From: Arthonia radiata
Lineage: Eukaryota > Ascomycota > Arthoniomycetes > Arthoniales > Arthoniaceae
Length of the DNA stretch: 64,000 nucleotides
NCBI GenBank assembly: GCA_002989075.1
Contig: PSQN01000007.1
Coordinates: 658,749-722,748, forward strand
Direction of reading: 5' to 3'
Every line of letters starts with the position of its first letter. Position 1 is the first letter of the stretch. This document shows positions 8,401-59,346 of the stretch, piece after piece. Both the position numbers and the translations under genes were made by a program. The notes under the pieces were generated by a model that made no database searches, was not told the origin of the DNA, and saw nothing but the letters and a program-made list of their open reading frames with translations.

Positions 8401-9378
8401 TCAGCCGTTCACCGCCTTCCCGGGCTCCTTTCGTAATGAATTGTAATGCTCGCCTAGTCCAAAGCCGTGTCTGTAGTATGCCAGCCATGCTTCACCTGTG
8501 GCTTGGCTTCCCTCCCCGGCTTCGATCTTCTCAAGGCGTCCACTGGCTTGCAGGATGTTGATGTTTATATTGTAGGCTTTAGCCAAGGCAGTTAATTCCA
8601 ATTGGCCACCCCATTCGCCAGTATCTCGTACCTTGCGTAGATAGTCCGAGAGAGGCTCCTCCAAGAAAGGCTCGAAATCATCTGGATGCGCAGAAATGTA
8701 GTCTGCAGCTGCGGCACGCACCTTCTTGTAGTCGGGCACACTTTTATCTACGGCAGGTTGGCTTTGATCCTGCGACAGATCTACGGCTGATTTGAGATTC
8801 AACTTCTGCTGCAGCATTTGATCTGCTACGGCCAGGTAGAGACAATGGCCATTTGCAGCAACTTCTTTCTCGACGAGACCGTGCTTTTCTGCTTCTTCTA
8901 GCATCTTGTTCCGCTCCAGTGTCTTCATATCAGGAATGTTGGCGGCTTCTTCGGCGGCTTGCGCCGATGCTGCATCTTGCTCAGCGGCTCGTCGCGCGAG
9001 TCGGGCTTTTTGACGGTTAGGCTTGCGCTGAGGCGCTTGTGACGCCGGCTGATCTTCTGCGCTAGTCACGACTAGACCTCGGACTTTTTCTTCGCCCAGA
9101 ATAGTAGCACGTCCCGCAGAGGCCTTCTGTGCTTGCTCTAACTGGCTGGCGTCATCGTCGCCGTTGATCGCAGCTTCGACGGCGTCATCCTCAGCAGAAG
9201 CCCTACCTTCGATAGCAGCGATCTCCGCAGCTTGTCGAGATTTCGTTTCCTGCTCTAAGAGTTCACACTCATTGGTGATCCCTTTCCGCGTCTTCTTAGT
9301 CGCCTGCTTTTTCTTTTGCGTGATGCGTGACTGCAGGTCTTTCTGCTCTCTTCCATGCCGAGCAGCAAGATCCTCCAT
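8401..9378 (-). CDS. OTU-domain cysteine protease (OTUD6/Otu2-like deubiquitinase)
   Basis: Probable ubiquitin-specific protease of the OTU family, 325 residues in one exon. The N-terminus (MEDLAARHGREQKDLQSRI) and the Lys-rich stretch after it match the usual start of fungal OTUD6/Otu2 proteins. This supports ATG at 9378. Residues 20-150 are charged, Ala/Glu/Lys-rich and probably coiled coil. The OTU domain covers about 165-320, with the catalytic Cys at 179 in ANGHCLYLAVADQ and the catalytic His at 311 in GEHYNSL. The residue three before the Cys, usually Asp (DGxC), is Asn 176, so the usual Asp-Cys-His triad is altered. Activity is therefore likely but not assured. The gene is convergent with the methyltransferase and begins about 220 bases from the RIP boundary. 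Confidence 0.9.
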   Translation of the reverse strand: MEDLAARHGREQKDLQSRITQKKKQATKKTRKGITNECELLEQETKSRQAAEIAAIEGRASAEDDAVEAAINGDDDASQLEQAQKASAGRATILGEEKVRGLVVTSAEDQPASQAPQRKPNRQKARLARRAAEQDAASAQAAEEAANIPDMKTLERNKMLEEAEKHGLVEKEVAANGHCLYLAVADQMLQQKLNLKSAVDLSQDQSQPAVDKSVPDYKKVRAAAADYISAHPDDFEPFLEEPLSDYLRKVRDTGEWGGQLELTALAKAYNININILQASGRLEKIEAGEGSQATGEAWLAYYRHGFGLGEHYNSLRKEPGKAVNG

Positions 9379-9596
9379 ACCTATTCAGACTTGAGAGTCT
9401 CTGCTGTTGTGACTGAAAGGAAAGTTTCGGCGTTGTGGTCAACAATACCATCGCAGTGGCTTGTAGAGATTCAGAAGGGGTTAGCATTTGGAGGTTGCGG
9501 CGGAGTAGCCTTAGTCTACTCAGGCCCGTGCGCTCGGCTGATATATTACCCGATAAGGAAATGCTCGCCCTACGGGCCTAAGGCTCGATAGCAGTC
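9379..9596. promoter_or_regulatory. OTU gene promoter and edge of the gene-rich block
   Basis: Normal-composition DNA between the OTU start codon and the abrupt switch to AT-rich sequence near 9,597. It must contain the OTU promoter. No specific motif stands out. Confidence 0.4.
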
Positions 9597-12018
9597 TTAG
9601 CGCGTTCTTATATTTTTTAGCATTTTCATACTTAAAAGTCGCCCTTTAATTCTACTACTATAATAATTAATTTAATAGGTATTTATATAAAAAAAAGTAT
9701 AATTAAAAGAGAATCTTAGAATTTGGTTCTATTTTTTTTAATTTAATTTATACTATATAAAATAGACTATATAGGCTCTTTAAAGAAGAGTAATAGTATA
9801 TAGTTAGGTATTTAATAACTTTATAGTAAAGAAAAATAAATTAAATAAGAAGAACTTAAATATAAGTAGTAGTTAATAAGAGATAAAAAGAAGAAGATTA
9901 ATTAGCTTTTTTTTAAGCTTTAATAGTAGTATACAACCTTTTATATTACTCTTTTATCTCTTATATACTTAATTATTATATAAGGCCTTTATAAACTTAT
10001 TAAAAGAATACTAATATTTAGATTAATTTAAGACTTATTTAATTATTTTAGGCTTTAATATAAGTTAATAGAGGCTATAATATCTCTAATAAAGGTTTAA
10101 AAAGAAGTAATAAGACTTTTAAGGTAGCTAATATTTAAAGAGTATAAGTTTAATTAAGTTTAAAAGCTTAGTATAGTTTTTAGCTATATAAATATTAAGT
10201 AAATTTACTATTAAAAAGCTTTAAACTTAACTTAACTACTACTTAATTTATTATAGTAAAAGTATATTAATTAACTTTAAAGTAAGAAGTATATTCTATT
10301 TCTCTATTAATGTATATATTTTATCCTTTTAATACTATTATATACTTCTTAACTATATAAGCATAATCTTCTTTTTAGTATTTTTGAACTTTTAATATAT
10401 AATTATAGAGTATTTATAGACTTAATTATATAATTTAACTGCTTTAAAGTATACTTAAGCTATAAAATATATATAAAGAACTACTAAAGCTTTAAAACTT
10501 AAGCTAACTAAGTGCTATATTAACTTACTATATAGAGTAAACTTATTATTTATAGCTATAATAACTTAAAGTAATTAACTAAATTAATATACTAAATATT
10601 AAGACTTTAAAAGAGTATTTACTTTAAAATAACTATACTTCTATACTAGCTAAAAGACCTTTTAACTTATCTACTAACTTAGTAGATAATCTATAAGAAG
10701 ATACTACTAAGTATAACAGCCGTTATAAGCTTCTTTAACGTACTAGTATAAATAACCTATCGTCTTACCGCTTAGAGCTTTAAAACGCTATATATAGGGT
10801 TTTTGAAGGCTATTAATAACCTTTTAAGTAATATTAAAGATATTATAATTTACTATTAACTAGCTAATATTCTATCTTCTTTTAACTCTAATTTTCTTTT
10901 ACTTCTTCTAATAAATATTAATAAGAGTATAAATAAAGAAAATATTAAAATTTAATATAAAATTAATGAAATACTTATCTTTCTTAATAAGTATTTTAAT
11001 ACTAAGCCTATTTATATTATTTTTAAAGACTAAAAGACTCTTTAGTAAGTTTATTTAATTATTGTAATATATACTAAGAATATTTATAAGTAGAACTAGT
11101 TCTAATATCTATTTCTAATACTTAGTCTCTTTTATTTATAAATTTACCTTACTTATAACCTAATAAAGATATATTATAGCCTAAATTTAATCTTAAGCTC
11201 TTCTAAACGTCTATAGTAGGTCTAAGAAAAGCTTAAATATAAAGGTATCTCTAGTAAGAGAAGTAACTACTAGGCGCTTAAGAACTTCTTAATAAATATC
11301 TAAAATAAGTAATTTTTTATATACTAGCTAGTTAATCAAGGGCTTAATTGATTAATAATAATATAGTAAATCTTAAGCTTAATTTAAAGTCTTAGAGTTA
11401 AGTAGTTTGAGTATTTAATTATATTAATAGTAAAGTATATTAATAACTAAGTCTATAGTAAAGATACTAACTAAAAGCTTTAATACTTTATAGACTTCTT
11501 TTAGAACGCTAGAACGTTTCTTAACCTATACTAGGCTATTAAATATAGTAACATTAAAATAATTATTAAATATATATACTACTACTATATTCTCTTCTAT
11601 AGTATATATAATTAAATTTCTTTACTTTCTTTATATCTTCACTACTAGATATATTAATCTATTTATATAAGATCTTCTACTTTTAATAATACTTATTAAT
11701 ATTAAAGGGCATATTAATAGCTTCTTTCTAGTTAATCTTATAAATAAGTACTTTAACGGCCTTATTAAGTAGATCTAGCTTAATAAATATAATAGTTACT
11801 AAACGTTTAGAGATATTATAAAGTATAGAACTATTAAAAAGCTATTTTCTAATTTACTCAACAACTAGCTTATAAAGTAGCTATTACTATACTAGTCTAA
11901 TATATATTTTCTTACGTATAGAGACTAGAATATCTTTCTTATAGCTATTAAATCCTTACTAGTAGTATAAAATAGTCTAGAGACTAATTTAATAGTCTTA
12001 AATAAGTCTCTAGACTAT
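9597..12018. repeat. AT-rich RIP-degraded repeat DNA, family not identified
   Basis: Dense TA dinucleotides, very few CG or CA, and stops in all frames at close spacing. This is what heavily RIPped repeats look like. I see no LTR pair, no recognisable RT or transposase motif and no gene. Short patches (for example 11,160-11,300 and 11,820-12,000) keep protein-like codon texture, so it probably derives from one or more old transposons. Confidence 0.6.
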
Positions 12019-17351: not shown

Positions 17352-17916
17352 ATACCTTCTTATTTTTATTGCGCTTATCTAAGTTAGCGTTGTTTTTTAG
17401 CGTCTAGTCGGTATATATATACAGACTATAATTATATAAAGAAGCTCTATAACGTTCGTCCCTTATTAGCTAATAATTAGTTTTTTTTTCTATTTACTTT
17501 CTATTTTCTTGCTAATACGTTAGTTAGCTAATTTTATTTATTCTTAATACCTTTAAATATCTAATACTCTTTAATACGCTAAAAAGCGTTGTACCGAGAA
17601 GAAGTAGTTAAAGAAAGAGGCGGAGAGAAAAGCTTGGGTTACTTTAGAAGAGTAGCTTTAGAAGAAATAAAAAGTCTCGTAGCTAAAGAAGAAGGTAAAC
17701 GTATTACAAGCATCTACTTTAAACAAATTAAATTATAATAAGCTGTTAGAGTAAGAAGAGTTGTCTACTACTATATTAAATAGCGATATACTAAATGCGT
17801 CTAGCGGGCTATCTATAAATTTTTATAAAGATCTGTTTTCTAAATTAGATAGTAGACCTATAACATAGTAAGCTAGCTTATTTACAAATAATCTAGGTGC
17901 TAGTAAGATACACTAG
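17352..17916 (+). pseudogene. Antisense retrotransposon gene, copy in F (damaged)
   Basis: Lies on the strand opposite to pol of its element, between pol and the 3' LTR. The start codon is mutated (ATA at 17,352). Exon 1 is 124 bases, the intron 17,476-17,527 (donor damaged to ATTAGT, acceptor GTTAG) and exon 2 ends at TAG 17,914-17,916. Of the six conserved cysteine positions (4, 7, 14, 23, 26, 33), only 7 and 14 are still Cys; the rest are Tyr. A basic coiled-coil-like region follows, then the PSGLS motif. Exon 2 is 389 bases, 21 more (seven codons) than in A, C, J and K. Confidence 0.6.
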
Positions 17917-19172: not shown

Positions 19173-19688
19173 ATGCCTCCTTGTTTTTATTGTGCTTGTC
19201 TAAGTTAGCGTTGTTTTTTAGTATTTAGTTAGTATATATGTATAGGCTATACTTATATAGAGAAGCCTTATAACGTTCGTCTCTTGCTAACCGATAGTTA
19301 GTTTCTCTTCTGCTTACTTCTTATTTTCTTACTAACGCGTTATTTAGCTAATTCTATTTACTCTTAATATCTCTAAATATTTAATACTCTTTAACGCGCT
19401 AAGAAGCGTCGTACCGAAAAGAAGTAGTTAAAGAAAGAGGTAGAAGGAAAAGCTTGGGTTGCTTTGAAAGAGTAGCTTCATAAGGAATAAAAAGTCTCGT
19501 AGCTAAAGGAGAAGGTAGACGTATTGTGAGCGTCTATCTTAGACAAATTAAATTGTAATAAGCTATTAGAGCAGGAAAAGTTGTCTACTGCTATATTGGG
19601 TAGCGATGTACTAAATGCGCCTAGCGGGCTGTCTATAGATTTCTATAAAGATCCGTTTTTTAAATTAAGTGGTGGATTAGAGTGTTAA
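19173..19688 (+). pseudogene. Antisense retrotransposon gene, copy in the inner type-B element
   Basis: ATG at 19,173, exon 1 of 124 bases to 19,296, intron 19,297-19,347 (51 bases, GTTAGT donor, ACTAAC branch-like site, TTTAG acceptor) and exon 2 from 19,348. Four of six conserved Cys are present (4, 7, 14, 23). Exon 2 encodes a basic RAKKRR stretch, a long Lys/Glu/Leu coiled-coil-like region, LLEQEK and APSGLSIDFY. A deletion removes the C-terminal tail, giving stop TAA at 19,686-19,688. Several in-frame TAG and TAA stops are of the RIP type. This copy best shows Cys 7. Confidence 0.65.
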
Positions 19689-22306: not shown

Positions 22307-22849
22307 ATGCCTCCTTATTTTAGATATATGTCGACTAAGGAAAGATATATAGTTTAGTTTAGAAAGGCGACGTGTTCGATGTATACTCGAGACGGAAAGA
22401 GTTATAATTTACGGGTATTAATGGTAGATAGTATGCCTCGTTGCTGTTTTCTTGTAGTAACTGGAACTAACTTAATTGCAGTGCGTTTAGTTTATTCTCA
22501 ATACTCCTCTTAGTCGGCTGCCCTCTAGCGCGCGAAGCGCCAATTACGTTCGTTAAAGGCTTAGATAGCAGCGTTCGTTGCAGCTGTATAGCGTAACCGA
22601 TCTAAGGTTTAGAAGTTAAAAGAGGAGGTTAAAAAGACTTGTGCGCAGGTAGCAGTAAAGTTAGCTTAGAATAAGTTATTGGAGTAAGAGAAGCTTGCTA
22701 CGTTAATAGCTAGTAATAATATATTTAAATGTCCGAGCGGGTTATCTATTAACTTTTGAAGTAACCTTTACCTAGTATTGGGTAGCGGTCTTATAACGTG
22801 GTAGACTGGTTTGTTTAAAGATAGTCTGGGTGCTAGCGAGGTATACTAG
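22307..22849 (+). pseudogene. Antisense retrotransposon gene, copy in C
   Basis: ATG at 22,307, exon 1 to 22,430 (124 bases), intron 22,431-22,481 (51 bases, GTATGC donor, ACTAAC branch-like site, TTGCAG acceptor) and exon 2 22,482-22,849 (368 bases, stop TAG). Only Cys 23 of the six conserved cysteines survives; the others are Tyr. The coiled-coil-like region and CPSGLS motif are recognisable. In-frame stops are TAG and TGA, explained by C-to-T or G-to-A change. Sequence type matches the A copy. Confidence 0.65.
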
Positions 22850-40790: not shown

Positions 40791-41214
40791 AGATACTGAG
40801 CCGAGAGGTAAGCGTCTAAGACAAACTAGACAACGTAGATAAGAAAGAACTACAAGCCTACGCAATTAGCCTACAATATAACGCTAAAGAGAAGATAGAT
40901 TACCTAAAGTACAGTTTAAAACATAAAATTAGTATAGTATTAAACTTTAAGACTATTTATATATAATTATAAAGCTTAAGCTATAAGAAAGCTAAAATAA
41001 GACTTGTACAGGAAGAAAATATAGAGCTATTCCGATAGACTAAGGAAAACTACTTACACAGATTAAAACTCTAGCCGAACAAAAGGCAGAAAACTACGAG
41101 AAGACTACCCGAACTAGCGCCGAAGTTAGTACGGATCAGCGGTATAATACTACTTAACCTAGTTGCGACTACCGTCGACGTAGTCCTAAATCTAATTAAC
41201 TAGATCTACTATAG

Positions 41215-41686
41215 TGTTACGGGCACCAGCCCTAGACGGCCTAGCGTGCACCCAAGCATCAACCACCGCTAGTCATCTCAGCCCTACCAGCATTATTCCC
41301 GACTAAGCCTATAAACCCGCCGTAGGCATTATCGGACAAGACGGCTATAAGAGCCTAAGTTCCATAAAAACCCGATATAAGCATTATAAAGATTAAAAGA
41401 AAAAGAGGAACTTCCCTATGTACCTTAGATTATATAGCTAGACTGATGGCCGACCTTAGGATAGACTTTAGTCTATTAACTTAACATCTGAATACAAGTT
41501 CCTTAACTATATTCAGGTAACGTGCTTCACCTTCTGTCTACTTTAGTTAAGCCCCTCTCACCCTCTGTAATCTGTCTCGCCTCTCCTGTCTTTTAGTCTC
41601 TAGCACACAAGACACCCACCACCAAGGTCGACAAGCACACAAGGCAAGTAAGCCTTAGTTCGGTCCTCCCAGCGACCGGCGTTACA
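41215..41686 (+). repeat. 5' LTR of A (472 bases, U3 type A)
   Basis: Starts TGTTACGGGCACC and ends CCGGCGTTACA. It differs from the 3' LTR mainly by transitions plus a patch of changes in the middle (around 41,362-41,401). Confidence 0.93.
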
Positions 41687-41728
41687 CTTTGACAGACTCG
41701 CTACGAAAGTAGAGAAAGCAGATTAATT
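41687..41728 (+). other. Leader of element A between 5' LTR and gag
   Basis: A 42-base leader starting CTTTGACAGACTCGC, conserved in C, F and K as CTTTRAYAGACTCGC. A tRNA primer site normally begins TGG just after the LTR. None is seen here, so priming may be unusual. Confidence 0.5.
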
Positions 41729-43870
41729 ATGTCTACTACTTCGGCACCCAACAGCCGCGACGCTGCGGACAGATTAGCCAACAGAATGGCCAGTACAAGT
41801 AAGATATCGGACGTTAACACTAAGATAGGAAAAAGTTTCTTAGGTAAACGTTTCGAAGTCACTTCATTCTTAACACGCCTAGCCGTGTACTTTAGAACTC
41901 ATAAAGACTAGTTCCCGAACAATACCACTATAGTTCTATTCGCTACCTCTTATATGAATAAAGATGCCTACAAGTAGGTCGAGTACTACCTCGACGATTT
42001 CTTATTTACCTCGATAAAGAGCAGGCGCGAGGACACCGACGAGTTCTTCGCTAGCTTTGCCTTCTTTTAGAAGAAGCTTCGCGAAATCTTTAGATAGACC
42101 GACGCTGGACGCGTCGCTATTAGGAAGCTTAGGAACCTCAAGCAGACAGGACCAGCAAGCAGGTACGCCGCTGAATTTATATAGTATGCTAATTAAACAG
42201 GATAGGACGAGAAACCCCTGATCGAGACCTTTTACGAAGGACTTAAGGATTATGTCAAGGAAATAATCTACATTCGTGGAGAAAAGTTTGATGATCTCGA
42301 CAACTTTATACAACGAGCAAAGGAGATCGACGACAGCAACTTCGAAAGACAAATAGAAAAGAAGGGCAATCCCACTAACAGGTTCTATGGAACAAAGAAT
42401 CGAGCAAACTTACAACAAGACCGAGGCGATCCAATGGAGTTAGATTTTACAAAGCCTCGAGGGAAACTAAATAACCAAGAAAGAGAACACAGAATAAAGA
42501 ACAAGCTATGCTTGTATTGCGGAAGACTAGGGCATCAAGTTAAAGAATGCCGCTTTAAGAAACAATAGTTCAACAGTACCGGCAGAAACAGGCATAACAA
42601 TCGATCTTAGAAACCCCGTTTCCCACGACAATAGTTCAATATAACTATTCAGACATAGGAACACTACGGTCGCAATAAGGCAATAGAATTACTGGCAGCC
42701 TTCTCCGACCGCTGGCACGTAAACCCAACCGGGGACCGTCTACTTCAAGCGTTTGGACTCCCACCTAAGATCAACCAGAACTGGTATGAGTACGTTACTG
42801 GACTCACCAAGGAGCAGAAGGACACCTATTGGGGTGCCTTCTGTAACCAGGAAGACACTTATTCAGTTACTTCCGATAAGAAGCACAACGAACTAAACTT
42901 GTTTAATTTACACAAAAACTGGGATACAGACAGTGAGTCATGGGAAGAAATAAAGGAACGACAAATGAAACAGGAACAATAAGACCTATAGGACTGGAAC
43001 AACATTAACCGCACTATTCCGAGGCATTAGGTACAGAGTACCGTTGCACCACACGATACACTATCCTAGACCGCGTGCTACAATAACGATTGCACGACCC
43101 ACGAATCCGACAAACTAGGGTTAGGATAGTGGCCGAAGAAACCGATATCTCCCAAACAAGGTTCGACACAAGAACTAGGCCTCGCCCGAGGACGACCTAG
43201 GTTACCTTACCCAGAAACCCAAGGGGAATCTAAGGAAGAACAGACCGTAGAAGCTAAGCAAGACAGCAGCTACGATGCGTTACAGGCAAGACAACGACTC
43301 GAAGACGAAAATATAGATTCTGATGGTACGGAATCCTCGCTCGAGGACGACACTAACTAGGAAGAACAAACCCCAATTCGTTGGGAAGGAATAATATAGA
43401 GACTTTGTTAGTTGGCCTTCTACAATGGGAAGTTGAGCGCTGATAGAGACATTAACAACATTCCGGGATACATTTACTCACGCCTACGACGACCAGTAGA
43501 CCACCTTATTAGGGGTCTAGAATTGCGCAGTCAGTACCAATATCTTTAACTAACAATGTACAACCCACAGACACGACGAGTTTTAACCAGCGATAGTTGT
43601 ATAATCAAAGTAGGGATCGTAAACGATAAACCAGACGTTATAATAAAAGCAGTATTAGGACACCCTACACAGGAATTCTTATAGCAAATCAACCGACAAT
43701 GAGTTCCGGTACCTAAAATACTCTAGAACGTATACAATTAACAGGGAAAAGACTAGGCCGACTACTTCGAGGGCAGCAGTACCGGCCCGTCTAACGGTTA
43801 AACCCTCTAGAAGTCTAGCTCTGCGCGAGCTCAGCTGCCTATAGAACACACTTACACACTCGGGCAACAG
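41729..43870 (+). pseudogene. gag of element A (stop-interrupted)
   Basis: ATG at 41,729 lies 43 bases after the LTR (MSTTSAPNSRDAADRLANRM). The first 60 codons are open, then TAG where other positions suggest Gln. The frame is kept to a CCHC zinc knuckle (C-x2-C-x4-H-x4-C, 42,509-42,550), the nucleic-acid binding part of Gag. It continues through an acidic region to about 43,850. Pol lies in the -1 frame relative to this one. Gag would form the particle shell; with the stops seen it cannot be made whole. Confidence 0.8.
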
Positions 43871-43879
43871 TAAACTACA

Positions 43880-46800
43880 GAAATATTAAAGTTATAATCG
43901 ATTTAGGCGCAACAGGCAACTTTATCTCAACACGCTGCGTTAAAGAGTGCCAGATACAAACACGAAAGAAGAAATTACCCTACGCACTGTCTAGATTTCA
44001 AGGGGCAGAGGGAAGAGTCGACTACGAGACTTCGCCAATAGGTATAACAATTAGGGACCATTGGGAAGAAATTACTTATAATATCGTAGATATCAACCAG
44101 CACCACGCTGTGCTAGGTATACCTTGGTTGCAACAATATAACCCAGAAGTAGATTAGAGAACTAAAAAACTCCTCTTTACTAGGTGCAAGCACTCTAAGC
44201 AAGAGTCGTTCTGCGGAACGAATACCCTACAAGCTAATTTTAGTAGTAAGGATAAGGAGCGCGATAAGGAACTTACGCGGGTCAGCACCACCACACTCCG
44301 ACATTCAGACATCCTACGAGAGGAGTCTAACGCAGTATCTCGTCTGTGGCCAACTATACGCAAGTGTAAACAAGAGACGACTGCCCGCCAACGATTCTAC
44401 ACGACGACAAGTACTCAGTTAATTACTGAAATACCTGAGGAATACGATTAATTCCGACACCTGTTTGAAGAAGCTGAGCCGGACTCAGCTCTCCTAGAAC
44501 ACAAACCGTGAGATCACACAATACCTTTACAAGAAGGCAAAACGCCAATATTCGGTCTAATATACTCTCTATCAGAAGCAGAAAATTAAGCGCTCCGCGA
44601 TTATCTTGACGAGAACCTTAAGAAAGGATTTATCCGGAAATCAACATCACTAGCCGGATACCCGATACTCTTCGTACCTAAGAAGAATAGCAAACTACGA
44701 CTCTACGTAGACTACAGACAACTGAACGGGGTAACTATTAAAAATCGATACCCTTTACTACGCATCAACGAAATAACAGATCGATTGTATAACGCGCAAT
44801 AGTTTACTAAGTTTGACCTACGAGGAGCATATAACTTGATCCGTATAAAGGAGGGCGAAGAATAGAAAACGGCCTTCCGCACTAGACACAGACTTTTTAA
44901 GTATTGCGTTATGCCCTTTGGGCTAACAAACGCTCTAGCATCATTTTAGAAACTAATTAACAACACACTTAGCGATTACCTAGACATATTTATAACTGCT
45001 TATCTAGACGATATCCTAGTGTACAGCCGTACACTAGAAGAATATAAAGAACATATTAAGAAGGTATTAAAAAGATTGACGCGTGCCGATTTACGAATCG
45101 ATATCGAGAAAACTTAGTTTCACCAACAATCCGTCGAATTTCTTAGATTTATAATTACCGAGCACGGTCTCTAAATAGAAGATTCGAAGATCTAATCCGT
45201 CCTGACCTGGCCTATACCAAAGAATATGAAACAATTACAACAGTTTCTTAGTTTTGCTAACTACTACAGGCGATAGATATCCAACTTTGGCCGAATCACA
45301 GCACCGCTGTCTCAACAGACGAAACAATCGACAGGATTCTCCTAGACGTAGAAAGAGCAATTAGCATTTAAAGAACTTAAAGAAGCTTTTGAGATTGGGC
45401 CTGTACTAGCAATATTTGACCCTAACCTACCGATTATCATAGAAACAGACGCGTTAGACTATACAATTGGAGCATACATAAGTTAAAACAACAAAGAAGG
45501 AAAGCTTAGACCAGTAGCTTTCTACTCAAGGAAAATGTTACCTACAGAACAGAACTACGATATTTACGATAAAGAGCTTTTAGCCATTATAGCAGCATTC
45601 GAGACATAGCGAGCTTACCTAGAAGGAGCAAACTATACGATTATAGTATACACAGACTACAAAAACCTAACTTATTTTACGACAACAAAGAGACTTAACC
45701 GTAGATAAGTTAGATAGTTAGAAACTATGGCTCTATACGACTTTATTATTACCTACAAGAAGGGTTCCGAGAACGACAGGGCCGACGCTCTAAGCCGACG
45801 ACCGGATTACCTTAATAACAAGGAACACGTCGAGCATGCAATATTCCGAGAACACAATAATGAGATTAGATACAATTAATTGGCTATAACAACCGAGTTT
45901 GTTATTAAACCAGACAGCCGAATCCCAGACATCCTGAACGACCCTAAAACCTACTAAGAAAACGAGAAACGACACCTAGGATTAACTAAGAACAACAAGG
46001 GATATTACGAATTCTAAGGTAAAATCTATGTCCCGAGGAATCTAATCCGGAACATTATCAGTAACTTCTACGATAACCCAACTAAAGGACATAAAGGCAT
46101 CGACAATACCATAGAAAAGATCACGAGAACCTACTACATCCCGAGGATCCGACACCACGTCGAGAATTATATCCGAGAATGCGATATATGCGCAAGAACC
46201 AAGCACCCGAGGCATTCACCATACGGTGAACTACAACCACTAGAGACACCCGAGAGACTATAGCACACAGTCTTACTAGACTTTATTACTAAGTTACCAA
46301 CTTCTAAGGATCCTTTTATAGGAGTAGCTTACGACGCTGTTCTGGTTATATGCGACAAACTAACAAAGTACGCGTACTTCGTACCTTACAAGGAAGCCAG
46401 CAACTTAGAACAGTTAGTATATACCTTCCTTTGGATTATCTTAGCAAACTATGGCCAACCCCAAAGAATTGTCTTAGACAGAGACCGGAAATTCGTCTCA
46501 CGGTTTTGGACATCCCTAATACAATAGCTAGAGACAAAACAAAAAATGTCAACATCATTCTATCCACAAACAGACGGACAGACAGAACGAATAAATTAAA
46601 CACTGGAACAGTATCTCCGGGCATACATCAACTACCAGCAGAACGACTAGGTACAGTTACTACCAGTAGCGCAAGCAGCGCACAACGATACAAAGAACGA
46701 TACAACCAAGACAACTCCGTTCTACGCCTTATATAGCTATCACCCTCTTCAGGGAAGACAACTACAAAATACCACAGAGAACGAATTAGCTACACGAATA

Positions 46801-47313
46801 GCTACGAACATAAAGCACCTGCACCAGCAGTTAAAGTCTGACAGCGAGTTTATTAACGAACGAACAAGAAAGTAGTATAACAAGTTAAGAATAACCCCAA
46901 ACACAAGCATAAAAGAAGGGGGAAGAGCTTACTTGCTTATAAGAAACTTAAAAACTATCAGATCAAGCAAAAAACTCGACTATACCAAGACAAAACCGTT
47001 CAAAATCTTACAGCAATTGGGACCCGTAACATTTAGACTCAAACTCCCAAAGACAATAAGAATACATCCTATATTTTACGTAGCGCTGTTGGAACCAGCC
47101 TACTTCCGAGAAGCAGAACGACCTAACCCAGAAATCCTTTCTAACAATCAAGAACCCGAGTATAAAGTCGAAACAATTCGAGCCTATAGACAATACCGAG
47201 GCAAACGACAGTATCTCATAAAGTGGAAAGAATATTCCGAACACGAAAATCAATGGGAACCGGAACGAAACCTGACCAACTGTAAAGACACCATCCGACG
47301 ATATTGGGACTAG
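43880..47313 (+). pseudogene. pol of element A: protease, RT, RNase H, integrase, chromodomain (stop-interrupted)
   Basis: Protease motif DLGATG is at 43,900-43,917, where DSGAT is usual (Ser to Leu). RT has the [11 protein letters not shown] block near 44,700, VMPFGLTNA near 44,910 and an intact YLDD catalytic pair at 45,001-45,012. RNase H has ETDALDY near 45,445 and YDKELLAI. Integrase has the zinc motif ending CDICAR near 46,180, the first catalytic Asp in LLDFITKLP near 46,275, the second in LDRDRKFV near 46,475, and DGQTERIN carrying the Glu. The chromodomain is at about 47,157-47,310 (YLIKWKEYSEHENQWEPE). The 46,933-47,313 stretch is fully open. Everything is in one frame, broken by TAG, TAA and a few other stops typical of RIP. 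Confidence 0.85.
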
Positions 47314-47356
47314 AATATTAGTCGGTCGTAGCAGCATTAACACCCTAATCCACTAC

Positions 47357-47899
47357 CTAGTGTGCCTCGCCGGCACTCAGGTTACCCTCAAACGAACCAG
47401 CCCACCATGTTACAGGACCACTACTCAATACCGGGTAGGGGTTACTCCGAAAGTCAACGGATAACCCGCTCGGACATTTAAATGTATCACTATTAGCTAT
47501 CGACGCAGTAAATTCTTCTTGCTCCAATAACTTATTCCGAGCCAACTTCGCTGCTGCCCGCGTACGAGTCTTCTCGACCTCCTCTTTCAACTTCCAGATC
47601 TTAGATCGGTCACGCTGCACAGCCGCAACCAACGCTGCTGCCTGAGCCTTTGACGCACGCAGTCGGCTCTTCGCGCGCTAAAGGGCAGCCGACTGAGAGG
47701 AATGTTGAGAATAAACCGAACGCGCTACAATCAAGTTAGTTCTAGTTACCACAAAAGGACACTAAAAAGGCATACTATCTGCCATCGACACCCGTAAATT
47801 ACAACTCTTTCTATCTCGAGTACACACCGAACACGTCGCCTTCCCGGACTAAACCACACACCTTTTCTTAGTCGACACATATCTAGAACAAGGAGGCAT
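47357..47899 (-). pseudogene. Antisense spliced gene of element A: Zn2Cys6-like cysteine cluster plus coiled coil (best copy)
   Basis: Lies opposite to pol, between the pol stop and the 3' LTR. Exon 1 is 47,776-47,899 (ATG at 47,899, 124 bases), the intron 47,725-47,775 (51 bases, GTATGC donor, ACTAAC branch-like site, TTGTAG acceptor) and exon 2 47,357-47,724 (368 bases, stop TAG). Product would be 163 residues. Cysteines at 4, 14, 23, 26 and 33 are present and position 7 is Tyr. Other copies show Cys at 7, so the pattern is C-x2-C-x6-C-x8-C-x2-C-x6-C, within the Zn(II)2Cys6 range. KKR precedes the third Cys. Exon 2 encodes a basic Arg/Lys/Ala/Glu stretch, probably coiled coil, then LLEQEE and CPSGLSVDF. 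Only two internal stops occur, both TAG (47,849-47,851 and near 47,676). DNA binding is inference. Confidence 0.72.
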
Positions 47900-48070
47900 C
47901 TCGATACCGCAGGCTTTAATTAACAGGTATTAGCTGTACTTTTTATTAGGACCCGCAGCAACGGACTTTATGCGAAGTATAGCGACTTACAGATTAGTTA
48001 CGAAAGGAGGGACGAAACGTAACTTATAAGTGTTTAAAAGGCTAAGGGTCAATCGAGGACAATTTAACTA

Positions 48071-48081
48071 GAAGAGGGGGG
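48071..48081 (+). other. Polypurine tract of element A
   Basis: GAAGAGGGGGG four bases before the 3' LTR, the usual place for plus-strand priming. The complement is conserved beside the 3' LTRs of C and F. Confidence 0.75.
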
Positions 48082-48085
48082 ATTG

Positions 48086-48557
48086 TGTTACGGGCACCAG
48101 CCCCAGACGGCCTAGCATGCACCCAAGCATCAACCATCGCCAGTCATCTTAGCCCTACCAGCATTATTCCCGACTAAGCCTATAAACCCGCCGTAGGCAT
48201 TATCGAACAAGACGGCTATAAGAGCCTACGTTCCCTATAAACCCGATATAAGCATTATCGGGATTGACGGACATAGAGAAACTTCCCTATATACCTTAGA
48301 TTATATAGCCAGACTAATGGCCGACCTTAGGATAGACTTTAGTCTGTCAACTTAACATCTAAATACGAGTTCCTTAACTATATTTAAGTAACGTGCTTCA
48401 CCTTCTGTCTACTTTAGTTAAGCCCCTCTCACCCTCTGTAATCTGTCTCGCCTCTCCTGTCTTTTAGTCTCTAGCACACGAGATACCCACCACCAAGGTC
48501 GACAAGCACACAAGGCAAGTGAGCCTTAGTTCGGTCCTCCTAGCGACCGGCGTTACA
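48086..48557 (+). repeat. 3' LTR of A (472 bases, U3 type A)
   Basis: TGTTACGGGCACCAGCCCC to CCGGCGTTACA, followed by target duplication TATAG. Confidence 0.93.
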
Positions 48558-48562
48558 TATAG

Positions 48563-49330
48563 CTAGCTTGTAAGGAGCCTTATTTGTAGGCAGCTAAGAG
48601 CCGTACAACCTTATATTAGAATTAAAGCTGTGGCGTAGCGCCTTAATACGCTTAAAATCGTTAGTATCGGTCTACTCGACCGACTTAGTACTTAGACCGC
48701 GCTGCCAGGTCTATAGCTAAACGTAAAAAGTACGAAGCAGAGTAAGATAGTCGTTGTAGAAAGACTCTTTGTTATTCTAAACGTCCTTGCTAAAGGTTAA
48801 GAAGAAGTTAGCGCGCACAAGAAGGTTATAGGTACGTCTTTACTAAGCAGAGACCTAGTATACGTTAATATAGGGTCAATTAGTATCTAAAACGGGGGAG
48901 TATTAGACTTACTATCTTATACTTGTCTTCCGACCTTTTAACACTAGTATAGCGAGTACACTTAGTGTACTGTTTCTTAGGCTACTCGCAGGCCTAGTCC
49001 TTATAATACTTAAAATTTAAGTTTGCGGAAGGACTACTATATATAGCTATATTGCTAAACAAGGCCTTTATACAACGGTAGCATACTAAGACGTAAGTCT
49101 CTAGCTAAGGCTAGATTAACGCAGGCATAGCGCGAAAAGCAGGATTCGAGGAGGTAGACTAACGAGACTTTATAGATAACTTGGGCTTATAAGTAGTACC
49201 GCGGTAATAAGAAGAACGGACAATTTTATTATCGTTAGAGTTATCTTTACGGACGTAACACTTTTAACGAGCTAGAATGCTAATAGTTAGACTAAAACAA
49301 AGCAATAAGAGATAGTAGACTTATAAGGAG
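48563..49330 (-). pseudogene. Antisense Cys-rich reading frame in element H (damaged)
   Basis: On the minus strand, opposite to H pol, a frame interrupted almost only by TAG runs from about 49,330 to 48,860. It contains VCYRCIKALF at about 49,086-49,057 and CTRYTSVKRSEDK near 48,960, where the Tyr may be a former Cys. A second frame, again with only TAG stops, continues to about 48,563. The switch between them implies an intron or a frameshift. Boundaries and start are not resolved. The position between pol and 3' LTR matches the antisense gene of element A, but the sequences are not obviously alike. Function is not known. Confidence 0.4.
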
Positions 49331-52132: not shown

Positions 52133-52672
52133 ATGCCTCTATATTTCTGTTACTTTTATTTAAATAAGAAGTATATTCTAAAGTTTAGAAAGATATCTTA
52201 CTTTATATACATTCGCGATAAAAAGTTGTACAATGTTTGTCTATCGTTAAAGAATAGTTAGTTTCTATCTTAATGTTTATTTATACTAGTTTTAACTTAT
52301 TTAGCTTAGAGTATCTATTCTTAGTACTTATAGATATTAAACGCTCTTTAGAAGCAGCGCAAGCATTTAGTAAAAGAGAAGGAAGTTATTTATACAGCAA
52401 AAAGGTAGCGCGAAGCTATTAAAGCGGCGGTTATTAATTTAAAGAAGGAGCTTAAAAGATTATACTTCTAGATACAAAATAAAATAAATTAAAATAATAT
52501 ATTGTTTAAGAAAATATAGTTAATAGCTATGTTTAGTAGTAATATTGTAGATATACTAAGTAGCTTAAGTATAGATTTTTATAATAATCTATATTTAAAG
52601 TTAGATAGTAGGCTACTTTTATAGTAAGCTAGTTTGTTTATAGATAATTTAAGTACTAATAGAGCGTACTAA
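52133..52672 (+). pseudogene. Antisense retrotransposon gene, copy in J
   Basis: ATG at 52,133, exon 1 to 52,256 (124 bases), intron 52,257-52,304 (48 bases, GTTAGT...TTTAG) and exon 2 52,305-52,672 (368 bases, stop TAA). All six conserved cysteine positions (4, 7, 14, 23, 26, 33) now read Tyr, exactly the outcome of TGT-to-TAT mutation. The spacing is untouched. The PSGLS-like site reads PSSLSIDFY. Exon lengths equal those of A, C and K. Confidence 0.62.
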
Positions 52673-53242
52673 ATAGTAAATTAGAGTATTAGTACTGCTA
52701 TAACTAATTAATATTTTAGTTCTAATATTGTTAAATAGTATTTTTATAGTTAGTTAGGTTTTATTTTAGTTTCTATTAATTTTTATATTTAGAGTATTCT
52801 TTCTATTTTATAAGATATTGTCGTTTACCTCGGTATTGTCTATAAGCTCGAATTATTTCGACCTTATACTTGGATTCTTAGTTATTAGAAAGAATTCTTA
52901 AGTTAAGTCGTTCTGCTTTATATAAGTAAGCTAGTTTTAATAGCGCTATATAGAATATAGAGTATATTCTTAATATTCTTAGAAGTTTAATTTTAAATGT
53001 TATAAGTCTTAATTACTGTAAGATTTTAAACAGTTTTGTCTTTATATAGTTAAGTTTTTTGCTTAGTTTAATAGTTTTTAAGTTTCTTATAAGTAAGTAA
53101 GCTCTTCCCCTCTTTTTTATACTTATATTTAGAATAATTCTTAACTTATTATACTATTTTCTAGTGCGTTTGTTAATAAACTCGCTGTTAAACTTTAACT
53201 ACTAGTATAGAGTTTTTATACTTGTAGCTATTTGTGTAGCTG

Positions 53243-53692
53243 TGTTACGATCTTACTATATTAGACTAGTACAAGACTAAGCGCAGCCAGCCTTATTGAA
53301 GCATTATATAGTATATCCGACGACTCTAATATAGCGACGTTAGCAACGTCGCTATATTGCAATAGAATCTTAACTACACGATAAAGAGATTGTTAAGACT
53401 ATTAAATATAGAGAAATATACTTTTATATCTTAAACTATATAGCTAAACTAATAACTAACTCTAAAATAGACTTTAGTCTATTAATTTAATATTTAAATA
53501 TAAGTTTTTTAACTATATTTAGATAATATACTTTATCTTTTATCTACTTTAGTTAAGTTCTTCTTATCTTCTATAATTTGTTTCGCTTCTTCTGTCTTTT
53601 AGTCTTTAGTATATAAAATACCTACTACTAAGGCCAATAAGTATATAAAATAAGTAAGCCTTAGTTTAGTTTTTCTAGCGACCGGCGTTATA
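53243..53692 (+). repeat. 5' LTR of K (450 bases)
   Basis: TGTTACGATCTTACT to CCGGCGTTATA. Its first part (U3) differs from U3 types A and B, while the second part (R-U5) is shared. Confidence 0.87.
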
Positions 53693-58804: not shown

Positions 58805-59346
58805 TTAGTACGCTCTATTAGTATCTAGGTTATTTATAAATAAACTAGCTTACTATATTAGTAGCCTACTACCTAACTCTAAATACAGATTATTACAAAA
58901 AACTATACTTAAGCTACTTAGTATATCTACAATATTACTACTAAATATAGCCGCTAGCTTTTCTTCTTTAAACAATATATTATTTTAATCTATTTTATTC
59001 TGTATTTAGATACATAACCTTTTAAGCTTCTTCTTTAAGTTTATAACCGCCGCTTTAATAGCTTCGCGCTACCTTTTCGCTGTACAAATAACTTTCTTTT
59101 TTTCTATTAAACGCTTACGTTGCCTCTAGAGGGTATTCAATACTTATAAGTACTAAGAACGAATACTCTAAGCTAAAAATAAGTTAAACTAACCTAAAAA
59201 CAAACGTAGAATAGAAACTAACTATCCTTTAATAATAAATAAACGTTATACAACTTCTTATTGTAAGTATATATAAAGTACGATACCTTTCTAGACTTTA
59301 GAATACACTTCTTACTTAGATAAGAGCAACGAAAATACAGAAGCAT
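58805..59346 (-). pseudogene. Antisense retrotransposon gene, copy in K
   Basis: Start ATG at 59,346, exon 1 59,223-59,346 (124 bases), intron 59,173-59,222 (50 bases, GTTAGT donor, TTTTAG acceptor) and exon 2 58,805-59,172 (368 bases, stop TAA). Cys 7 and Cys 14 survive; positions 4, 23, 26 and 33 are Tyr. Sequence type matches the J copy (LSKKC before the third position). The coiled-coil-like region and the C-terminal motif are recognisable. Confidence 0.65.

What the first reader, a model, noticed from the sequence alone, without database searches (positions are those of the whole stretch)
47357..47899. A spliced gene on the antisense strand of a chromodomain Gypsy family, with Zn2Cys6-like cysteine spacing, in six copies
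Copies are at 17,352-17,916(+), 19,173-19,688(+), 22,307-22,849(+), 47,899-47,357(-), 52,133-52,672(+) and 59,346-58,805(-). Each is antisense to pol and sits between pol and the 3' LTR. Exon 1 is 124 bases in all six. An intron of 48-52 bases with GT...AG ends follows in the same codon; in one copy the donor is mutated. Exon 2 is exactly 368 bases in A, C, J and K, although these belong to two diverged sequence types. Exon 1 has six positions spaced C-x2-C-x6-C-x8-C-x2-C-x6-C that are Cys or Tyr (TGT to TAT) in every copy. Different copies keep different cysteines. Exon 2 gives a basic coiled-coil-like region and a PSGLS motif. Conserved length, splice frame and cysteine spacing argue for a real protein under past selection, perhaps a DNA-binding regulator of the element or its host. 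The six-cysteine reading, the intron and DNA binding are inference.
Basis: partly seen in the sequence, partly recalled or inferred. Interest (0 to 1): 0.92.

Follow-up and report, generated by a model that had tools for sequence, protein, structure and literature searches.

The report
Antisense zinc-cluster-like gene in retrotransposons
Fungal jumping genes here carry an extra spliced gene on the opposite strand that looks like a small zinc-cluster protein, and this gene together with the neighbouring promoter DNA occurs in three versions on one shared backbone, which suggests a self-regulation module.

Summary
The antisense gene is real. It lies between pol and the 3' LTR of a chromodomain Ty3/Gypsy element in a RIP-mutated fungal genome. 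Three gene types were found (f1 = J, C; f2 = K, N; f3 = A, B). Transversions, which RIP cannot make, concentrate at third codon positions (f1-f3 0.18/0.16/0.32, p=1.5e-4). The f2 intron has 36.7 gap runs per kb per copy against at most 1.3 in f2 coding segments. The spacing C-x2-C-x6-C-x8-C-x2-C-x6-C is intact in 10 of 40 f1 copies and in one little-mutated f2 copy, whose N-terminus scores 20.3 bits against Zn_clus, cut-off 21.

New: the three types share one backbone. Transversion divergence between types is 0.3-2.9% in pol but 15-39% in gene, spacer and upstream U3, with edges near the end of pol and at the sense TATA-like box. The likeliest reading is an element-encoded regulator paired with its own U3, in layout like HTLV-1 HBZ. 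Antisense genes at this place are known (Grande, RIRE2, Retand, Boty brtn); regulation is inferred.

The parts
41215..48557 (+). Ty3/Gypsy element J (sense orientation), TATAG on both sides
   Evidence: LTR pair 41211-41686 / 48082-48557; ends and TATAG read directly
46933..47313 (+). 3' end of pol: Tf2-1-like SH3 and chromodomain
   Evidence: Pfam PF00385 54.3 bits, PF24626 49 bits
47318..47980 (-). Antisense gene, longest reading: upstream start site (mutated in J) to codon 177, the stop that is invariant in 40 f1 copies
47900..47980 (-).
   Evidence: in frame in copies of all three types, preceded by a shared TAAGTCG sequence; but no codon-position signal of its own
47776..47899 (-).
47801..47890 (-). 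Six-cysteine array C-x2-C-x6-C-x8-C-x2-C-x6-C (codons 4, 7, 14, 23, 26, 33; codon 7 is Tyr in J)
47725..47775 (-). Intron of 51 bases
47357..47724 (-).
47318..47356 (-). C-terminal extension to codon 177, inside the shared backbone
48023..48028 (-). TATA-like sequence 43-48 bases upstream of the upstream start site; also seen in f3 copies, not clear in f2
   Evidence: read by eye
47385..48285 (.). Diverged cassette: antisense gene (all but its end), spacer, polypurine tract, upstream U3
   Evidence: transversion profiles between types
48086..48557 (+). 3' LTR; about the first 200 bases belong to the cassette, the rest is shared by the types
48288..48293 (+). Sense TATA-like sequence at the LTR edge of the cassette
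   Evidence: read by eye
17352..17916 (+). Copy A (f3)
19173..19688 (+). Copy B (f3), 3' end of the gene altered
22307..22849 (+). Copy C (f1)
52133..52672 (+). Copy K (f2)
58805..59346 (-). Copy N (f2)

Best explanation
A chromodomain Ty3/Gypsy element carries an accessory gene on the strand opposite gag-pol, tail to tail with pol. It is transcribed from a promoter inside the element, spliced once, and gives a protein of about 190-210 residues: a zinc-cluster-like N-terminus with six Cys, a basic middle and a conserved C-terminus. The intron survives retrotransposition because the packaged RNA is the other strand. The protein acts in the nucleus on the upstream U3 of its own element type and tunes (most likely damps) sense transcription. 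Gene and U3 therefore stay together as one cassette, of which three versions sit on one gag-pol backbone. Shown here: the gene, its codon constraint, the intron (clearest in f2), the cysteine spacing and the cassette. Inferred: transcription, splicing, zinc and DNA binding, the target, the sign of regulation, and why the intron survives.
For: Gene: excess of transversions at third codon positions in three type pairs (0.23/0.17/0.30 p 0.019; 0.18/0.16/0.32 p 1.5e-4; 0.18/0.15/0.26 p 0.021; ungapped blocks together p 0.024, 1.7e-5, 0.02). pN/pS 0.53-0.64, bootstrap upper limits 0.63-0.78, between three copies. In 40 f1 copies, 19 codon columns from -26 to 176 hold stops and in each of them at least 4 copies have a sense codon; codon 177 is always a stop. 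Sense strand: 3-11 stops in each of the 12 frames examined in 4 copies.
Intron: f2 gap runs 36.7 per kb per copy (25 of 29 copies) against 0.4-1.3 in f2 coding segments; donor GT in 86 of 88 copies and acceptor AG in 87 of 88; CTAAC or CTGAC branch-like sites in the copies read by eye.
Zinc cluster: spacing conserved in three types; Zn_clus 20.3 bits.
Cassette: transversions between types 0.3-2.9% in pol, 15-39% in gene, spacer and upstream LTR; pol third positions differ at 5-10 of 287 in the four f1 comparisons against 26-32% in the gene. Edges at 47370-47400 and about 48285-48300 for f1-f2 and f1-f3, similar for f2-f3. U3 type agrees with gene type in 83 of 88 copies, 5 unassigned, 0 mismatched.
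Against: No transcript or protein data. No homologue outside this genome, though the protein library looks nearly empty of fungal proteins: the chromodomain itself found only 4. Zn_clus stays below Pfam's cut-off and other pieces score far lower. CGG/CCG triplets, the usual Zn2Cys6 half-sites (recalled), are not enriched in the U3 of 6 f1 copies (P 0.11-0.45). The 27-codon extension alone shows no clear third-position excess (10/9/11, 8/4/10, 8/7/7 of 27), and single blocks of f1-f2 and one of f2-f3 are not significant. The 51-base intron of f1 keeps the frame in 40 of 40 copies and is stop-free in 21, so f1 alone does not show splicing. One sense frame is open for 129-132 codons in 2 of 4 copies. 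Gene and U3 are neighbours, so their linkage may be proximity. Cassette types are clustered on the pol-end tree (7 changes against a shuffled mean of 28.8), so exchange has been infrequent.
Confidence: 0.5

Rival explanations
1. It is a real accessory protein with a zinc-cluster-like domain, but it works in the retrotransposition cycle itself (nuclear import, integration targeting, nucleic-acid chaperone), not in transcription.
For: Maize Grande GENE23 is nuclear, Retand ORF4 and PvRetro13 ORF2 carry other domains, and the review suggests a role like that of retroviral accessory proteins. The exon-2 stretch is basic.
Against: Does not explain why the gene is diverged together with the U3 upstream of the sense TATA-like box.
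Confidence: 0.22
2. The cassette needs no functional coupling: template switching between co-packaged RNAs (strong-stop transfer near the RNA start, then a switch near the end of pol) replaces the 3' part of the element, so whatever lies there moves together.
For: The LTR edge lies at the sense TATA-like box, close to where the RNA should start (start inferred). The pol-end tree needs 7 changes of type, least possible 2, and one clade is rejected for f3 (p-AU 0.021). Gag is mosaic too.
Against: Similar edges in three type pairs and 0 mismatched gene-U3 pairs among 83 assigned, although adjacency alone could give this. It explains movement, not why three versions are kept. One clade is not rejected for f1 (0.13) or f2 (0.105).
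Confidence: 0.2
3. A noncoding antisense RNA, or a chance open frame, with no protein.
For: 38 of 40 f1 copies have stops in the frame; antisense transcripts of retrotransposons can act as RNA (review passage).
Against: Third-position excess of RIP-proof changes, intron-confined indels in f2, conserved Cys codons.
Confidence: 0.04
4. A captured host gene fragment carried as a passenger.
For: Zn2Cys6 proteins are abundant in fungi (recalled), and capture is known in other retroelements (review passages).
Against: Constraint across three diverged types. 78 of 88 copies read have an alignable pol end beside them. A diverged host parent gene was not specifically sought.
Confidence: 0.04

Closest known systems
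[quoted passage not shown] 2011; original not held; known here from PMC7264820 section 5 and from passages of PMC8365987 and PMC4227169)
   Same: Additional antisense gene between pol and 3' LTR of a fungal Ty3/Gypsy element whose gag-pol has a chromodomain
   Different: The sequence of brtn could not be compared; the passages seen mention no zinc cluster, intron or cassette
Antisense additional ORFs of plant elements: Grande gene23, RIRE2, Retand, PvRetro13 (PMC7264820, abstract, sections 5 and 7 and passages)
   Same: Position, antisense orientation, presence in most copies; gene23 has its own upstream promoter and a nuclear product
   Different: No zinc cluster reported: the word zinc does not occur in the main text of that review
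HBZ of HTLV-1 (PMC3185765, abstract and passages)
   Same: Antisense gene at the 3' end of a retroelement, main product from a spliced transcript, damping sense transcription
   Different: bZIP, not zinc cluster; starts in the 3' LTR; no cassette; no homology suggested
Fungal Zn2Cys6 transcription factors (Pfam PF00172)
   Same: Six Cys at the class spacing, basic residues between the second and third Cys
   Different: Score just under the family cut-off; very short protein
Immunity regions of lambdoid phages (recalled)
   Same: Regulator and target DNA occur as alternative cassettes on a shared backbone
   Different: Analogy of layout only; regulation is not shown here

Membership tests
Antisense additional ORF between pol and 3' LTR | Antisense to gag-pol and between pol and 3' LTR | tested here: met
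   copy J; three types with many copies
Antisense additional ORF between pol and 3' LTR | Transcribed antisense | not testable with these tools
   no RNA data
brtn of Boty | Sequence homology to brtn | not testable with these tools
   paper and sequence not held
Zn2Cys6 (PF00172) | C-x2-C-x6-C-x5-12-C-x2-C-x6-8-C (pattern recalled) | tested here: met
   all six Cys in 10 of 40 f1 copies, 0 of 30 f2, 0 of 18 f3 (5 of 6 in 4 copies); all six in the f2 copy L092
Zn2Cys6 (PF00172) | Pfam gathering score of 21 bits | tested here: not met
   best 20.3 bits, E 6e-4; others lower or absent
Zn2Cys6 (PF00172) | Binds two zinc ions and CGG-type DNA | tested here: inconclusive
   zinc binding not testable; CGG/CCG not enriched in the U3 of 6 f1 copies
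Ty3/Gypsy chromovirus | Chromodomain at the end of pol | tested here: met
   PF00385 54.3 bits

The most novel reading that the evidence does not exclude
The cassette is an immunity-like module: each type encodes a zinc-cluster regulator that recognises only its own U3, so resident elements limit their own type while elements with another cassette, on the same gag-pol backbone, escape. Exchange of cassettes by template switching would then be how a family re-invades its genome, as exchange of immunity regions is for temperate phages.
Probability: 0.27. Interest if true: 0.9.

Novelty: new variant of a known kind. Interest (0 to 1): 0.72.

Why it matters
Antisense accessory genes of LTR retrotransposons have long been noted, with functions unknown (review). 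A six-cysteine array, an intron and pairing with one of three U3 types turn this into a directly testable hypothesis. Transversion analysis, which RIP cannot disturb, also offers a way to detect genes inside RIP-destroyed repeats without rebuilding them.

Tried and rejected
Chance ORF or noncoding RNA: disfavoured. Mirror of a sense gene: two of four copies have one sense frame open for 129-132 codons, but by codon geometry the third positions of that frame (frame 2) would be the antisense second positions, the least diverged ones; the sense frame that shares third positions with the antisense frame (frame 1) has 8-11 stops. Constraint as the cause of the cassette: rejected, since pol third positions are about ten times less diverged than those of the gene. 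First pol control: its f1-f2 values are spoilt by a frame change in the reference copy and the script then stopped with an error; replaced. In one search the f2-f3 codon phases are not valid (coordinates are those of f1) and are not used. CGG half-site enrichment: not found. Rfam: nothing in 41000-49000. Bacterial promoter scan: nothing, and not suited to a fungus. IMG/VR: 473 pattern matches, none confirmed. Other cassette types: of 9 J-like pol ends that I saw by eye had no gene in the lists, I fetched 4; all 4 carry f2 cassettes, so no fourth type was found; 5 were not looked at. Papers: 10 searches answered; those combining antisense, Zn2Cys6 or zinc cluster and retrotransposon showed no title on such a gene, but I saw listings only, one search listed 20 of 567, and the library lacks most subscription papers. 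Rows dropped: 10 of 88 copies before the tree; 5 of 88 unassigned; L089-L091 left out of f3 (two read as f2, one unrelated). In one search the f2 copy was spliced 3 bases too far for the pN/pS count, which drops one codon.

Full report
Setting. The window lies in a 33.5 Mb assembly of 16 contigs, in a stretch with GC 0.17-0.46 from about 10 kb on. Element J spans 41215-48557 with LTRs of 472 bases and TATAG on both sides. Its pol ends in a chromodomain. The antisense gene fills the space between pol and the 3' LTR.

Copies. I read 40 f1 copies (40 scored of 183 candidates), 30 f2 copies (of 40 near full-length places, 201 candidates) and 18 f3 copies (of 21 places), later 4 more f2 cassettes.

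Gene model. In f1, 19 codon columns between -26 and 176 hold stops and each also holds sense codons in at least 4 of 40 copies; codon 177 is a stop in 40 of 40. In f2 and f3 codon 164 is a stop in 30 of 30 and 16 of 17 readable copies, so there the protein may end at 164; the letters at that place belong to the shared backbone. A TATA-like sequence stands 43-48 bases before it in J.

Selection. RIP makes only transitions, so I compared purine/pyrimidine states. Differences between types rise at the third codon position in all three pairs and in ungapped blocks taken together; the three pairs are not independent. The N-terminal extension alone shows no clear signal, so its coding status rests on the open frame and the shared start region. 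Classical pN/pS on three copies is 0.53-0.64, less reliable because RIP adds transitions. In the end of pol, f1 comparisons show few differences, third position highest in each (for example 2, 1 and 5 of 288, 287 and 287).

Intron. f2 intron lengths run from 47 to 53 bases in 30 copies, while f2 coding segments rarely change length (3, 3 and 4 of 29 copies with an indel, against 25 of 29 in the intron). In 20 of 30 f2 copies the intron length breaks the frame and all 10 others have a stop inside; in f3, 16 of 18 keep the frame and 15 of these have a stop, but such stops may be RIP products. f1 alone is ambiguous: 51 bases in 40 of 40, stop-free in 21. The intron diverges more than the exons (f1-f3 21 of 51 sites). 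The first two donor bases are GT in 39 of 40 f1, 30 of 30 f2 and 17 of 18 f3 copies; the acceptor ends in AG in 40 of 40, 30 of 30 and 17 of 18.

Cysteines. At the six columns f1 copies read Cys 190, Tyr 49, other 1; f2 Cys 34, Tyr 145, one incomplete; f3 Cys 57, Tyr 50, other 1. Cys to Tyr is a RIP-type change. The little-mutated f2 copy L092 keeps all six and gives the best Zn_clus score, 20.3 bits against a cut-off of 21.

Cassette. Between types, transversions are 0.3-2.9% over about 1300 bases of pol but 15-39% in upstream LTR, spacer, extension, exons and intron; two f1 copies differ by 0-1.2% throughout. Along the whole element J against N, 150-base bins outside the cassette reach at most 2.7%, except two bins at 42651-42950, three unmatched bins at 46551-47000, the bin that straddles the pol-side edge and the 5' U3. 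The shared LTR part starts at the sense TATA-like box. Median differences in the pol end are 1.0% within f1, 2.8% within f2, 1.8% within f3 and 1.7-2.8% between types (78 of 88 copies): types are no further apart in pol than f2 copies are among themselves. The pol-end tree needs 7 changes of type (least possible 2; shuffled mean 28.8); one clade is rejected for f3 (p-AU 0.021), not for f1 (0.13) or f2 (0.105). Only 5 of its 56 inner branches are well supported, so repeated exchange is likely but not firmly shown.

Mechanism. The protein gene and the DNA upstream of the sense TATA-like box diverge together. The simplest functional reading is that the protein acts on that DNA. That step and the sign of the effect are inference. 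Template switching as the physical route is inferred from general knowledge of LTR-element replication.

Known relatives. PMC7264820 (abstract, sections 5 and 7, passages) describes antisense ORFs at this place in Grande, RIRE2, Retand, PvRetro13 and Boty, functions unknown. Boty brtn (original not held) is the nearest fungal precedent, so the kind is known. HTLV-1 HBZ (PMC3185765, abstract and passages) is the best functional parallel.

Limits. No RNA or protein data and no second fungal genome. The protein library gave only 4 hits for the chromodomain itself, so the lack of homologues says little.

Noticed in passing
window 41901-42500: Within gag, J differs from C (same cassette type) by 8-15% transversions but from N (other type) by at most 2%: a second mosaic boundary.
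   Followed up: partly
window 42651-42950: Short patch of high divergence and gaps between J and N, mostly unmatched in C, in otherwise nearly identical internal sequence.
   Followed up: no
L092 1-941: An f2 cassette with GC 0.52 beside a pol end that matches J at 90%, far less mutated than the other f2 copies read.
   Followed up: partly
window 48201-48350: J and C, both f1, differ by 6% transversions in this TATA-proximal bin, hinting at a subtype.
   Followed up: no
window 9001-11000: Change from GC about 0.53 through 0.40 to 0.19, the edge of a RIP-affected repeat block.
   Followed up: no
window 53241-53408: The pol match beside copy K stops near 53241 and the LTR match of element N begins near 53376: abutting or nested insertions of the same family.
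   Followed up: no
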